This document shows positions 12,352-54,990 of a DNA stretch of 64,000 bases, in pieces. Location of the stretch: the NCBI GenBank assembly GCA_021927905.1, contig BLLK01000013.1, positions 62,001 through 126,000 on the forward strand, in the 5' to 3' direction. Position 1 is the stretch's first letter. Each line of letters opens with the position of its first letter. Source of the DNA: Chaetoceros tenuissimus. Taxonomy: Eukaryota > Bacillariophyta > Thalassiosirophyceae > Chaetocerotales > Chaetocerotaceae. The position numbers and the translations under genes were made by a program. Below the pieces are notes generated by a model. It did not search any database, had not been told where the DNA came from, and saw only the letters and a list, made by a program, of their open reading frames with translations.

Positions 12352-12743
12352 AGGATGCACATTCACACGAGTGCGTCGTGATGATTCTTGGTGGCTACAC
12401 CTGGAAATGAGTAAAGTGACTTTTACAACAGTTACAATGACAAGACTATGGAAATGTGGACGTGATATTTGTTTTATAAGTGGGCAGTTTTGGAAAGTTC
12501 GAACAGAATCGTCATCTCGTGGTGACTTTTCTGGTAGACCTTCTATTCTATATATTATTGAGTGCTTTTTTTGCAAAGACAAAATAATCCATTCAATATT
12601 ATAATTAGCAGTATGATGTATATGTTTTTGTTTGATTTCAATTAGAATCTGTACGTTCTAAAGTTGGTCAGTTGAAAAATACAATTCGATGGTAATAGTG
12701 ACTAGAGAGTATATATATTGCAGTAGCCACACGAAGCACAACA

Positions 12744-12796
12744 AGCAAAGTTATCAGAAGATTCCGGGTTCGAATCCCGGGCGGGTGGCATAATTT
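12744..12796 (+). repeat. Orphan tRNA-Arg(ACG) 3' half with leader and T-run
   Basis: Bases 12754-12787 repeat the anticodon 3' strand, variable loop, T arm (CCGGG-TTCGAAT-CCCGG, with box B) and acceptor 3' strand of the permuted tRNA at 17 kb. The match also extends upstream into the leader AGCAAAGTTA. No 5' half lies within several hundred bases on either side. A TATATATA stretch is centred about 35-40 bases upstream (12709-12718), and a TTTT run, the minimal Pol III stop, follows at 12793. It is either a decayed copy or a separately transcribed half. Confidence 0.7.
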
Positions 12797-16425: not shown

Positions 16426-16948
16426 AATACTGACTTTTACATCTCAACATGCTCGTTTCGGAAGCGTGGTCGGCTCTCTAAAACTAAACAATGAAAATCA
16501 TTGCAACCAAAAGAAATATGTTCTGTAAACCACTAGAAACTACTACTTGTCTCGCTTGTGTGTGTAAGTTCAATCATAGGTGGAGAAGCAAGGGAGTGGA
16601 AAGATGCATGTTTTGTGCATTGAAGGAGGAAAGAAGAGACGACGAGAGTTTGAGCTGAGTGGCTCTCAAGCGGTAGGAAAAGACCATCATCGCTGAAAAG
16701 CTAAATTAATATTATTTAGCCAAAGCTATTTTAGCGGGTTGTCAAGCATTGGTCCTGCTTTTGTCTTTGTAAAATTTTACACTGAAAACAAACTTTTTAC
16801 TTGTTCGATACGTTGTTAGCGACAGGTGCGCTGAAATGTTTGATGATTTCAAGGATACTGTGAAAGTACTTACACGCTAGTTCACAAGATATTCATATTG
16901 CGTATTTTATACTATTACTTTATATTTTCAAGAGTACACAGGTTTCTC

Positions 16949-17046
16949 AGCGAAGTTATCAGAAGATTCCGGGTTCGAATCCCGGGCGGGTTTCCCATGC
17001 GACCCGTTGGCCCAACGGTAAGGCGTCTGACTACGGTGCTCTTTTT
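16949..17046 (+). tRNA. Candidate circularly permuted tRNA-Arg(ACG): 3' half precedes 5' half
   Basis: Order on the strand: leader with AGCG (16949-16952), 3' half 16958-16993 (TCAGA, AGATT, T arm CCGGG-TTCGAAT-CCCGG, acceptor GCGGGTT), a 7-base joint (CCCATGC plus the adjoining base choice), 5' half 17001-17036 (acceptor GACCCGT, D arm with GGCCCAACGGTAAGGC, anticodon strand TCTGA, loop CTACGG), trailer TGCT, then TTTTT (17042-17046), a Pol III stop. Rejoining 5' to 3' half gives a complete cloverleaf: 7-bp acceptor with G-T pairs at its ends, anticodon stem TCTGA/TCAGA perfect, loop CTACGGA with anticodon ACG, and a body matching eukaryotic tRNA-Arg(ACG). Box B precedes box A. The joint between the halves lies at 37/38, the usual intron site, and leader AGCG can pair with trailer TGCT beside the anticodon stem. 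This is the organisation of permuted tRNA genes of red algae and prasinophytes. A chance side-by-side placement of two tRNA fragments is the alternative. Confidence 0.7.
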
Positions 17047-17250
17047 GCATTTTTTACTGCAGAGTATCGAACTTGTAGCGGGTAGACTATCCTGTTGCAA
17101 TCATGATTGCCAAAACGCTAGCATATCTAAGGTGATACATGTTACGGAGCTTCTTTTGCATTTTTTTACTGCAGAACTATTATCGAATTTGCAGCTGGTA
17201 GACTTTTCTGTTGCAATCATGATTGCCAGAACGCTAGAATATCTACGTAA
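17040..17250. repeat. Tandem duplication of a ~90-bp block after the permuted tRNA
   Basis: The block from TTTTTGCATTTTTTACTGCAG through GTTGCAATCATGATTGCC to CTAGCATATCTA (about 17042-17131) recurs at about 17153-17248 with moderate divergence. It begins at the terminator of the tRNA 5' half, so the tRNA trailer is part of the duplicated unit. Confidence 0.75.
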
Positions 17251-17345: not shown

Positions 17346-17798
17346 TCAATTCAAGTTTTTCTTGAGAGTCAAGATACCTTTCCTAGATTCTTCACCATTC
17401 TTCGATGGATCCATATACATGAAATATCCCAATTTTTCATGCATTCCTATCTCTGCCACATTTTTACGGCGAACGCGTAGATGCAAGAAGGAATAATTCC
17501 AATCATTGCAGACTTTGTTCTCACAAATTTGTATAAGTGTCCGAGCAATACCCTTTCTTCTCCATTGAGAAACGACAGCAAGATTGCATAGGTAAGGCCT
17601 AGGAGCCAAAATCTTTTCTGACTTTTCTCTACAATCCACTTCGCATATTGCAACTACTTCGTCATTGCTTTTCCGACAAGCAACGAGTATGATATAATTT
17701 TCACCAACCAATTCCATTGAATCTTTTAGACTGAAGAAAGTATTGAGCCATTCTAAAGGGCTTGTAATGATATTGAAACTGAAGAATGCATCGGTCAA
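17346..17798 (-). CDS. GNAT-family N-acetyltransferase
   Basis: A 150-residue intronless frame that covers a full GNAT fold. Motif A is clear: YLCNLAVVSQWRRKGIARTL, with the acetyl-CoA-binding Q/R-x-x-G-x-G/A loop as WRRKGIA. It is followed by motif B, LHLRVRRKNVAEIGMHEKLGY in two parts: a beta strand, then the N...A...L-G-Y/F pattern that marks the last helix and strand. It resembles RimI-like and plastid GNAT enzymes that acetylate proteins or small amines. There is no signal peptide, and the substrate cannot be told. It lies between two copies of the tRNA-Arg 5' half, inside the repeat-rich stretch. Confidence 0.8.
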   Translation of the reverse strand: MTDAFFSFNIITSPLEWLNTFFSLKDSMELVGENYIILVACRKSNDEVVAICEVDCREKSEKILAPRPYLCNLAVVSQWRRKGIARTLIQICENKVCNDWNYSFLHLRVRRKNVAEIGMHEKLGYFMYMDPSKNGEESRKGILTLKKNLN

Positions 17799-17830: not shown

Positions 17831-17876
17831 GACCCGTTGGCCCAACGGTAAGGCGTCTGACTACGGTGCTCTTTTT
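17831..17876 (+). repeat. Orphan tRNA-Arg(ACG) 5' half with trailer and terminator
   Basis: Identical to 17001-17046 over the acceptor 5' strand, D arm, box A, anticodon strand TCTGA, loop CTACGG, trailer TGCTC and TTTTT. No 3' half lies adjacent. The identity includes the trailer and terminator, so the copied unit was the half gene and not a mature tRNA. Confidence 0.8.
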
Positions 17877-18155
17877 GCATTTAAATTTATGTTATGAGCT
17901 TTTGGCTGCGTACGTACGCAGATGGAACTCTCTTTTTTGCTCGTGATCTATTCTATTGAGGCAAAATAGACCTGTTCCCTGAGATCCAATGATAAGTAAA
18001 GCACACTACCCGTTGGCCCAACGGTAAGGCGTCTTCTACCGTGCAATTTTTGCATTTTTGTTAACTTGTCTGGGTACGTATATGGAACTCTTTTTGCTGG
18101 TGATCTATTTTATTGAGGCAAAATAGATCTGCTCTCTGACAATCTGATGATAAAC
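17877..18155. repeat. Duplicated flank of the orphan tRNA 5' halves
   Basis: The blocks ATGGAACTCT...TTTTTGCT-GTGATCTATT-TATTGAGGCAAAATAGA after the 17831 half and after the 18007 half are copies of each other. Each unit is therefore about 170 bp and starts with a tRNA 5' half. A perfect palindrome TGCGTACGTACGCA occurs at about 17908-17921. Confidence 0.7.
18007..18051 (+). repeat. Degenerate tRNA-Arg(ACG) 5' half
   Basis: It follows the 17001 and 17831 copies through TACCCGTTGGCCCAACGGTA and AGGCGTCT, then loses bases in the anticodon strand (CTTCTACCGTGC). It still ends in a TTTTT run. The altered anticodon strand could not pair well with the 3' half, so this copy is decaying. Confidence 0.75.
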
Positions 18156-18433: not shown

Positions 18434-19991
18434 ATGACAAACAAGAGAGAACGTTCAGAGGAAGACGGCAAAGAGATGGAAGCTGACTATGAAGAGGGCA
18501 AGACTACAGAGAGTGATGCTGAAATGGAGGAAGAAAACTCAAAAGAAAAAACAAAAACTGGAAACAGTCAAACAGACTTTTCGACTGAACTGCTAGCTCA
18601 ATACTATTCCCGTCTTTTCCCTTTTGAGATGCTTCATGAATGGCTATCCTATAATCCAGATGCATGTAACCCAAAGGCCAAAGCGAATAGCACCAAAACG
18701 AAATCAAAGACATTTACTCATCGTGAATTCTCCTTCACCATTGAACCATTTCCAGGTGAAGAGATTTACATCCGTTATCAGTCATTCAAGGATCAGGCTG
18801 ACCTTACAAATGCTGTACTCAAACGTAATCCACGCAAGATTGATATCGGAGCTGTATTTTCGCATCCACCAAAAGATCACAAAGCTATTCAAGGAATGGC
18901 GAAATTTGCTCCTTGTCAGCGTGAACTTGTGTTTGATGTGGATTTAACAGATTATGATGGTGTTCGTAGATGTGGATGTGACGGAGCAAATATTTGTCAT
19001 AAGTGCTGGAAAATGATGGGTATGGCTATGAAAGTCATGGATCAAGGCTTGAGAGAAGATTTCGGTTTCGACAACATTGCTTGGTTCTATAGTGGAAGAC
19101 GTGGTATTCACGCATGGGTCTGTGACGAGAGTGCAAGACAATTAAGTGATGCTGGAAGAAGTGCAGTTGCTAGTTACTTTGAGGTATGTTTATTGTGTCT
19201 ACTTTGATTACTTATATGTTGTATGTTACATGTCTTCTCGAATATTCTTCTCAACGCTTTTTCAAATGTAGGTCAACCTTGGAACAGACAAGGATAAGAA
19301 TGTCGGCATCCACACTCCTCTACATCCTACTCTTTCGAGAGCACATAAAATTTTGGAACCAATGTTTATTCGTGATATTATACCTGAAGGCAAGCATGGG
19401 ATTCTTGCGGAAGAAGAGAAGTGGACTGAGCTTCTTGAGACTCTACCACAAGGAGCAATGACAGTGAAGGATAAACTCCTCAAGAAATGGAGTAAAGATT
19501 ACTCCACAGCAGCTGAAAAATGGGATGAACTCAAGAGATATTTGAATATTCTAATTGGAAAAAGTACGGATAAGAAAGTTAAACAAAATAAGGGAATCAA
19601 CGCGAAGGACAAGGAAGAAGTTGAGCTTTGGCCTGTAGCAACTGTGTTCAGATATACTTATCCACGTTTAGATATTAATGTATCCAAGATGCAAAACCAT
19701 CTTTTGAAGTCACCATTCTGTGTGCATCCAAAAACTGGAAGAGTGTGTGTACCTATTGATTGCAGCAACGTCGACGACTTTGACCCTTTCAATGTTCCAA
19801 CACTAGGACAACTCATGAAGGAACTCGATGGATATGATGGTGAGGATGTTACAAATGAATGGGAAAAGACTAGTTTGAAAGAATCTTTCGGTAAATTTCA
19901 GAAGGACTTTTTGCTTCCAATGTGGAAAGACTTGAAAAGAGCAGAGAAAGAAGAGGCAGAAAAGATGGCAGCAGTCACTGGTGATTTTTAG
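18434..19991 (+). CDS. PRI1: DNA primase small (catalytic) subunit
   Basis: Exons 18434-19183 and 19272-19991 (donor GTATGT, acceptor TGTAG, phase 0) encode 489 residues. It synthesises RNA primers for DNA polymerase alpha in the nucleus. Catalytic motif I is RELVFDVDLTDYD with Asp168 and Asp170. Next is a Cys-rich zinc site, CGCDGANICHKCW, as in archaeal and eukaryotic primases. Then comes SGRRGIHAWVCDE, the S-G-x-R-G-x-H nucleotide-binding motif. The C-terminal exon has the usual PRLDINVSKMQNHLLKSPF segment. The first ~45 residues are an acidic, Lys/Glu-rich extension. Human PRIM1 is about 420 residues, so the extension accounts for most of the added length. Confidence 0.95.
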
Positions 19992-54898: not shown

Positions 54899-54990
54899 TT
54901 GCTGACCCAAGTTTCGATCTTGGGACCTTCGGGTGTATCAACCTTCTATTGGAATATGAGCCCGACACGCTTCCTCTGCGCCAGTCAGCA
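54899..54990 (-). tRNA. tRNA-Met(CAT), elongator type, with 20-base intron
   Basis: The minus strand gives acceptor TGCTGAC/GTCAGCA (7 perfect pairs), discriminator A, D arm GCGC...GCGT, anticodon stem TCGGG/CCCGA with loop CTCATA-A, and T arm CCAAG-ATCGAAA-CTTGG. A 20-base intron (54935-54954 on plus) sits between positions 37 and 38, the usual nuclear site. The AU-rich, non-initiator features and the intron favour elongator tRNA-Met. It shows that the host has a tRNA splicing endonuclease, which a permuted tRNA would also need. Confidence 0.9.

What the first reader, a model, noticed from the sequence alone, without database searches (positions are those of the whole stretch)
16949..17046. 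Candidate circularly permuted tRNA-Arg(ACG) gene
The 3' half of a tRNA-Arg (from A38 through the acceptor 3' strand) lies 7 bases upstream of the matching 5' half (acceptor 5' strand to G37). Rejoined, the halves form a full cloverleaf with a perfect anticodon stem and anticodon ACG. The break is at 37/38, the leader AGCG can pair with the trailer TGCT next to the anticodon stem, and a TTTTT stop follows the 5' half. Box B precedes box A. Permuted tRNA genes are established in the red alga Cyanidioschyzon, prasinophytes and a chlorarachniophyte nucleomorph. I know of none in a diatom. The internal loop flanking the 4-bp helix is larger than in a strict bulge-helix-bulge, so processing is inferred.
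Basis: partly seen in the sequence, partly recalled or inferred. Interest (0 to 1): 0.92.

Follow-up and report, generated by a model that had tools for sequence, protein, structure and literature searches.

The report
Back-to-front arginine tRNA gene in diatom
A diatom appears to encode one of its essential arginine transfer RNAs only as back-to-front genes, with the second half written before the first, a rare arrangement known mainly from some red and green algae, so the cell would have to join the RNA's ends to make it work.

Summary
The window lies in a 41 Mb genome matching the diatom Chaetoceros tenuissimus NIES-3715. At 16958-17036 the 3' half (A38-U73), a 7-nt spacer and the 5' half (G1-G37) of a tRNA-Arg(ACG) lie in permuted order. 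A permuted-tRNA model trained without this gene scores it 57 bits. A second permuted copy lies on another contig: all 72 half positions are identical, while DNA upstream of the leaders shows 26 mismatches in 69 aligned positions (Fisher P 4e-10). Three targeted searches of the held assembly found no contiguous tRNA-Arg(ACG); a matched control pattern found contiguous tRNA-Arg(TCT) and (TCG) genes. Upstream motif and terminator resemble those of ordinary tRNA genes here. The junction is only a relaxed bulge-helix-bulge. Lone 5' halves and one promoter-bearing lone 3' half lie nearby. Most likely these are functional permuted genes matured through a circle; expression is untested. I found no earlier diatom report in the searches named. 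New member of a known kind, in a new lineage.

The parts
16920..16935 (+). TATA-like upstream element TTATATTTTCAAGAGT
   Evidence: Best match to a motif learned from 40 contiguous nuclear tRNA genes of this genome, where its median position is -35; here -38 from A38 (P 0.029 against random 65-nt stretches of the window, uncorrected for 6 stretches tested), and also -38 in the C16 copy (P 0.047)
16949..16957 (+). leader AGCGAAGTT; AGC can pair with GCT of the trailer
   Evidence: 7 of 9 identical in the C16 copy (AGCAAAGAT); the lone 3' half has AGCAAAGTT. That the transcript starts here is inferred
16958..16993 (+). tRNA-Arg(ACG) 3' half, A38 to U73, holding box B
   Evidence: identical in the C16 copy; model R1 hit
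16994..17000 (+). intervening spacer CCCATGC
   Evidence: CCCAGC (6 nt) in the C16 copy
17001..17036 (+). tRNA-Arg(ACG) 5' half, G1 to G37, holding box A and the anticodon
   Evidence: identical in the C16 copy
17037..17046 (+). trailer TGCTC and TTTTT terminator
   Evidence: followed by GC; T runs followed by GC also follow many contiguous tRNA genes of this genome
12711..12786 (+). lone 3' half: promoter-like motif 12711-12726, leader AGCAAAGTT 12744-12752, A38 to U71 at 12753-12786; reads GG in place of U72 U73
   Evidence: only a 43-nt block from leader to U71 is shared with the other two loci found; motif P 0.00045, uncorrected for the 6 stretches tested
17143..17175 (+). remnant of a further 5' half: TACGG plus a trailer copy
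17831..17866 (+). lone 5' half, identical to the permuted one, with TGCTCTTTTT trailer
   Evidence: 54-bp block identical to the permuted 5' half and its trailer; no upstream motif, P 0.57
18007..18042 (+). degenerate 5' half (7 mismatches without gaps)

Best explanation
The window holds a working nuclear circularly permuted tRNA-Arg(ACG) gene (type II, junction 37/38) of a Chaetoceros diatom, and a second permuted copy lies on another contig; together they are the only tRNA-Arg(ACG) genes found in the held assembly. Proposed path: RNA polymerase III starts near the leader under an upstream TATA-like element, reads 3' half, spacer and 5' half, and stops at the T run (inferred from sequence). 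Leader AGC pairs with trailer GCU beside the anticodon stem and the halves fold into a cloverleaf (predicted). The tRNA-splicing endonuclease cuts after G37 and before A38, a ligase (an RtcB is encoded) joins them into a circle, RNase P and tRNase Z cut out the spacer, and CCA is added (inferred from the pathway described for other algae). After A34-to-I34 editing (recalled, general to eukaryotes) the tRNA would read CGU, CGC and CGA.
For: Complete cloverleaf in permuted order: 57.0 bits from a model trained without it. Second permuted copy with 72 of 72 half positions identical, against 43 matches and 26 mismatches upstream of the leaders, Fisher P 4.4e-10. No contiguous gene by joined-sequence search, by a box A-anticodon-box B pattern that allows a short intron, or by a 22-nt anticodon-arm pattern with up to 3 mismatches; the matched control pattern finds the contiguous tRNA-Arg(TCT) (two copies) and (TCG) genes. 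CGT and CGC are used: 87 and 29 of 10,256 codons in 18 mechanical ORFs of 300 or more codons in the window. Upstream element at -38 in both copies, contiguous genes at median -35. Base 20 is U; a paper's text says that diatom nuclear tRNA-Arg carry U20 or C20 (PMC8975779, passages read). The genome has one match to the tRNA-intron endonuclease domain and one to RtcB in two adjacent stretches. Both predicted precursors fold with the permuted cloverleaf and a leader-trailer helix, with ends that I chose.
Against: No RNA data: neither transcript, circle nor joined tRNA was seen. The junction is not a strict bulge-helix-bulge: the strict-like pairing is less stable (-24.8 kcal/mol) than no junction pairing (-25.8) or the 4-bp outer helix (-28.9), and only 3 outer pairs are predicted in the C16 copy. 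Folding energy is not unusual against dinucleotide shuffles (z -0.31 for the window precursor, 0.15 for its circle, 0.38 for the C16 precursor). The upstream motif matches are modest (P 0.029 and 0.047, uncorrected). Identical halves could partly reflect gene conversion. The assembly may lack a contiguous gene: the held copy has 68 contigs, organelles included, while the paper reports 85 nuclear scaffolds, and the genome search warns that some counts are lower bounds. A tandem contiguous tRNA pair also rings the model, at 46.3 bits.
Confidence: 0.86

Rival explanations
1. The halves are relics: pieces left by local duplication of a once contiguous tRNA-Arg gene, not expressed, while a contiguous gene missing from the held assembly does the work.
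For: The neighbourhood is full of duplicated pieces: lone, truncated and degenerate halves. The assembly is not chromosome-level, and the held copy has fewer contigs (68) than the paper's 85 nuclear scaffolds (PMC8613185, passages read).
Against: Zero changes in 72 half positions in two permuted copies whose upstream DNA shows 26 mismatches in 69 aligned positions; leader-trailer pairing, upstream element and T run present in both; no contiguous gene by three searches; held assembly 41.0 Mb against an estimated 39.7 Mb haploid genome. The degenerate 5' half at 18007 shows what a decaying copy looks like here.
Confidence: 0.09
2. Split tRNA in trans: the tRNA is also, or instead, made by trans-splicing separate 5'-half and 3'-half transcripts, the permuted genes being fused versions.
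For: A lone 3' half 4.2 kb upstream keeps leader, 3' half to U71 and the best promoter-like match of the six stretches tested (P 0.00045, uncorrected), with flanks that match nothing else found in the genome. The 5' half is unchanged at 36 of 36 positions between the lone C8 copy and the permuted C16 copy, and between the lone C16 copy and the permuted C8 copy, beside downstream DNA at 26 mismatches in 133 and 12 in 93 aligned positions (Fisher P 0.0015 and 0.02).
Against: Lone 5' halves have no significant promoter-like motif (P 0.57 and 0.10). The lone 3' half would put G72 against G1. Recombination between neighbouring half copies can explain identical halves. Separate transcripts are not needed, since two permuted genes exist.
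Confidence: 0.1
3. A non-tRNA RNA that mimics tRNA, such as a Y RNA-like RNA with a tRNA-like module.
For: The C16 copy gives a sub-threshold Rfam match to YrlA, 26.7 bits, E 0.06.
Against: The gathering score of that family is 69 bits, and most such sub-threshold matches are chance by the tool's own warning; the elements of a tRNA-Arg including anticodon ACG and U20 are intact, and no other gene for this tRNA was found.
Confidence: 0.02

Closest known systems
[quoted passage not shown]
   Same: 3' half upstream of 5' half, junction 37/38, spacer of 7 nt (C. merolae range 7-74), TATA-like element upstream, T run downstream, CCA not encoded after base 73
   Different: Different lineage (diatom), isotype and anticodon: no Arg(ACG) in the review's Table 1; two dispersed permuted copies plus lone halves; expression not shown
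Permuted tRNA genes of prasinophytes (Ostreococcus, Micromonas) and the Bigelowiella natans nucleomorph (Maruyama 2010, seen only through PMC3978253)
   Same: All but one type II in the review's Table 1; O. lucimarinus has an additional 5' half downstream of its permuted tRNA-Cys(GCA), like the extra 5' halves here
   Different: Green-algal genomes; mostly Ser, Cys, Leu and iMet; the extra halves here include a promoter-bearing lone 3' half
Permuted tRNA genes of Auxenochlorella (PMC12636532, passages read)
   Same: tRNAscan-SE gave an incomplete set and permuted genes were then detected
   Different: Green alga; details are in a supplement not read here
Split (trans-spliced) tRNA genes of archaea such as Nanoarchaeum equitans (PMC4033280, passages read)
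   Same: Halves broken at a splice site, with complementary leader sequences and a relaxed BHB
   Different: Encoded as separate transcripts; here the halves of the main genes share one predicted transcript

Membership tests
Circularly permuted tRNA gene | 3' half encoded upstream of the 5' half of one tRNA, rejoining to a complete cloverleaf | tested here: met
Circularly permuted tRNA gene | Outer halves absent, so not a tandem pair of ordinary genes | tested here: met
   10-kb scans of both loci list no 5' half before a 3' half; tandem Ala pair as contrast
Circularly permuted tRNA gene | Strict bulge-helix-bulge motif at the junction | tested here: not met
   strict-like pairing is less stable than no junction pairing in the window copy. 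Not a requirement for membership: the review gives a relaxed form (HBh') for the C. merolae tRNA-Leu(UAA) junction
Circularly permuted tRNA gene | Leader-trailer helix next to the anticodon stem, with cuts at 37/38 | tested here: met
   AGC/GCU outer helix predicted in both copies, 4 bp with a G.U in the window copy; the cuts themselves are inferred
Circularly permuted tRNA gene | Short spacer without its own terminator; T run only after the 5' half | tested here: met
   spacers of 7 and 6 nt; T runs after both 5' halves
Circularly permuted tRNA gene | TATA-like element upstream of the 3' half | tested here: met
   -38 in both copies, modest scores P 0.029 and 0.047, uncorrected
Circularly permuted tRNA gene | No contiguous gene supplies the same tRNA (supporting, not required) | tested here: met
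   none found; positive control. Not a proof of absence
Circularly permuted tRNA gene | Circular RNA intermediate and mature, aminoacylated tRNA | not testable with these tools
   no RNA data held
Split (trans-spliced) tRNA genes | Each half transcribed from its own promoter | tested here: inconclusive
   lone 3' half has a strong promoter-like motif; lone 5' halves do not
Split (trans-spliced) tRNA genes | Halves form a full acceptor stem in trans | tested here: inconclusive
   lone 3' half gives 6 of 7 pairs, G1 against G72 (read by eye from the sequence)

The most novel reading that the evidence does not exclude
Permuted and split forms of one tRNA coexist: the promoter-bearing lone 3' half and the unchanged lone 5' halves are also expressed and spliced in trans, which would be the first split tRNA in a eukaryote as far as the reviews I saw go (PMC4033280, Table 1: archaea only) and the first organism with both forms (the 2014 review PMC3978253 states that no such organism had been reported).
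Probability: 0.1. Interest if true: 0.92.

Novelty: new member of a known kind. Interest (0 to 1): 0.74.

Why it matters
Permuted tRNA genes were listed in 2014 from six algal species and one archaeon, with no stramenopile among them (PMC3978253). A diatom whose apparently only tRNA-Arg(ACG) genes are permuted would mean that an essential tRNA of a marine alga depends on RNA circularisation, and would suggest a further independent origin. The extra half copies around two duplicated loci make the origin of permutation (duplication and loss, or reverse transcription) testable in close relatives. ARAGORN and Rfam did not report the gene, so missing tRNAs in other diatoms should be rechecked.

Tried and rejected
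Folding energy as evidence: z-scores near zero against dinucleotide shuffles, so not used. TFIIIC search to argue for TATA-driven transcription: no match for PF09734 or PF04182, but PF09734 rang in 0 of 14 controls and PF04182 in 4 of 14, all prokaryotes, so absence is not shown. The RF00005 genome list was not used to show absence: it scored 63 of 2031 candidates and did not list the tRNA-Gln(TTG) that ARAGORN finds in L037. Searches for the same sequence elsewhere, as exact patterns in viral contigs and genome contigs, found nothing; these collections are not diatom genomes, so this says little. Literature: 'permuted tRNA' with 'diatom' gives 6 papers, 5 listed. I looked at passages of PMC8450103, PMC12636532 (published form of the listed preprint) and PMC13353863; those passages report no diatom gene; PMC4090602 and PMC4929541 were seen in the listing only. 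Further searches, listings only unless a paper is named elsewhere in this report: (33 papers hold 'permuted tRNA gene', 31 listed). The strict bulge-helix-bulge that I first drew by hand (C32 with G-3, U33 with A-4; note) is not favoured by energy. A tRNA-Lys context for the lone 3' half, suggested to me by a similar trailer, was not supported: its flanks match nothing else found in the genome.

Full report
Source. The window is C8:62001-126000 of a genome of 41,027,912 bases in 68 contigs. Contigs C67 (36,047 bp) and C68 (116,465 bp) carry many tRNA genes on little DNA, as organelle genomes do. The genome paper of Chaetoceros tenuissimus NIES-3715 gives 41.0 Mb, a largest scaffold of 4.46 Mb, a mitochondrial genome of 36,047 bp and a chloroplast genome of 116,464 bp (PMC8613185, passages read); the longest contig seen here is C34 with 4,456,483 bp. 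I take the genome to be this diatom and C8 to be nuclear. The paper reports 85 nuclear scaffolds, so the held copy may lack small ones.

Anatomy. 16949-16957 leader AGCGAAGTT; 16958-16993 3' half A38 to U73; 16994-17000 spacer; 17001-17036 5' half G1 to G37; 17037-17046 TGCTC and TTTTT. The rejoined tRNA has a perfect anticodon stem around CTACGGA, a perfect T stem with loop TTCGAAT, a 7-bp acceptor stem with two G.U pairs, a D stem with 3 of 4 pairs, U8, G18G19, U33, and A15 with U48 (tRNA numbering conventions recalled). Base 20 is U. The text of PMC8975779 says that the available diatom nuclear tRNA-Arg carry U20 or C20 and the organellar ones A20 (passages read); its Table 2 also lists A for the cytosol of Chaetoceros neogracilis and Asterionella formosa, and its methods name one Chaetoceros record as mis-annotated plastid tRNA.

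Not chance. ARAGORN and Rfam at gathering threshold do not report it. I built a covariance model of the permuted cloverleaf from 18 other tRNAs of this assembly (13 nuclear, 5 organellar), rearranged in a script with random linkers, leaving this gene out. It scores the window gene 57.0 bits (E 3.6e-15, rough), the C16 copy 56.7, and everything else in the window, L063 and L064 24.7 or less. In 32 further held loci it gives 56.7 for L066, which holds the C16 copy, 46.3 for two tandem contiguous tRNA-Ala genes in L028, the upstream one degenerate, and 28.0 or less otherwise. So the score alone cannot tell a permuted gene from a tandem pair; the absence of outer halves can, and scans of 10 kb around both copies at up to 9 mismatches show no 5' half before a 3' half.

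Second copy and selection. G000:C16:2658578-2658655 has the same order, with a 6-nt spacer. All 72 half positions are identical. In the 70 nt upstream of the leaders there are 43 matches, 26 mismatches and 2 gap columns; Fisher P 4.4e-10. Further downstream a 683-bp alignment is 92.5% identical. These differences exceed the 1.56% heterozygosity of the genome, so I read the two as a duplicated locus, not alleles. Selection is the simplest cause of the unchanged halves; gene conversion may contribute.

No contiguous gene found. A search with the rejoined 72-nt sequence at E up to 10 returns seven half matches, four 5' halves and three 3' halves, and no 5' half lies before a nearby 3' half, so an intron-bearing gene of the same sequence is not seen either. 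A pattern box A - TACGR - box B, which needs TGGCNNAANGG and allows an intron of up to about 29 nt, returns two: a chance-like match on C13, and the C16 5' half running into downstream DNA. The 22-nt anticodon arm and variable loop with up to 3 mismatches returns none. The same form of pattern for TCT/TCG returns the two contiguous tRNA-Arg(TCT) genes and the tRNA-Arg(TCG) gene, plus four matches that look like chance; its reversed control has one match. Arginine codons CGT and CGC are used: 87 and 29 of 10,256 codons in 18 mechanical ORFs of 300 or more codons in the window.

Expression signals. A 16-nt motif learned from upstream regions of 40 contiguous nuclear tRNA genes (consensus TTATATTTTGTAATAG, median position -35; 33 of 40 above the 95% point of random window stretches, in-sample) is matched at -38 from A38 in both permuted copies, P 0.029 and 0.047, and at -42 for the lone 3' half, P 0.00045; lone 5' halves P 0.57 and 0.10, the degenerate 5' half P 0.27 (none corrected for six tests). 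T runs followed by GC close both permuted genes, as in many contiguous genes.

Processing. Predicted folds of both precursors, with ends that I chose, hold the permuted cloverleaf. In the window copy the leader and trailer form four pairs (one G.U) plus a 2-bp inner helix; in C16 three pairs. A strict bulge-helix-bulge is not favoured. The review of permuted tRNA genes describes relaxed forms and the pathway: endonuclease cut, ligation to a circle, removal of the spacer probably by RNase P and tRNase Z, CCA addition (PMC3978253, first three of eleven parts and passages read). The genome gives one match to the tRNA-intron endonuclease domain (57.3 bits) and RtcB in two adjacent stretches. Nothing of the processing has been seen as RNA.

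Lone halves. C8 has a lone 3' half 4.2 kb upstream (12753-12786), a lone identical 5' half (17831-17866), a truncated remnant (17143) and a degenerate 5' half (18007). C16 has one lone 5' half. Downstream DNA of the lone C8 5' half aligns with that of the C16 permuted 5' half, and downstream DNA of the C8 permuted 5' half with that of the C16 lone one, which suggests that recombination has swapped partners. In these two pairs the 5' half is unchanged at 36 of 36 positions, against 107 matches and 26 mismatches, and 81 and 12, in the downstream DNA (Fisher P 0.0015 and 0.02). The lone 3' half shares only its leader-to-U71 block of 43 nt with the others. O. lucimarinus has an extra 5' half beside a permuted tRNA-Cys (PMC3978253), so extra 5' halves are not without precedent. 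Whether lone halves act in trans is open; I give it 0.1.

Verdict. A well-supported permuted tRNA-Arg(ACG) gene pair in a diatom, with no earlier report found in the literature that I could search, a new member of a known kind. Expression remains to be shown.

Noticed in passing
window 54899-54990 (-): Initiator-like tRNA-Met (T loop ATCGAAA) with an apparent 20-nt intron at 37/38 (read by eye), suggesting that tRNA splicing at this site is in use in this genome.
   Followed up: partly
L028:1398-1573 (G000:C42): A degenerate tRNA-Ala(AGC) lies about 30 bp upstream of an intact tRNA-Ala(AGC) in tandem; it rings the permuted-tRNA model at 46.3 bits and serves as a control.
   Followed up: yes
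upstream of contiguous nuclear tRNA genes, several loci: A TATA-like motif, roughly TTATATTTTGTAATAG, sits near -35 of many nuclear tRNA genes, so upstream promoters may be general in this diatom.
   Followed up: partly
window 17346-17798 (-) and 18434-19207 (+): Neighbouring ORFs match a GNAT acetyltransferase (PF00583) and the DNA primase small subunit (PF01896).
   Followed up: no
L063:5570-5672: Sub-threshold Rfam match of the C16 permuted gene to YrlA (26.7 bits, E 0.06).
   Followed up: no
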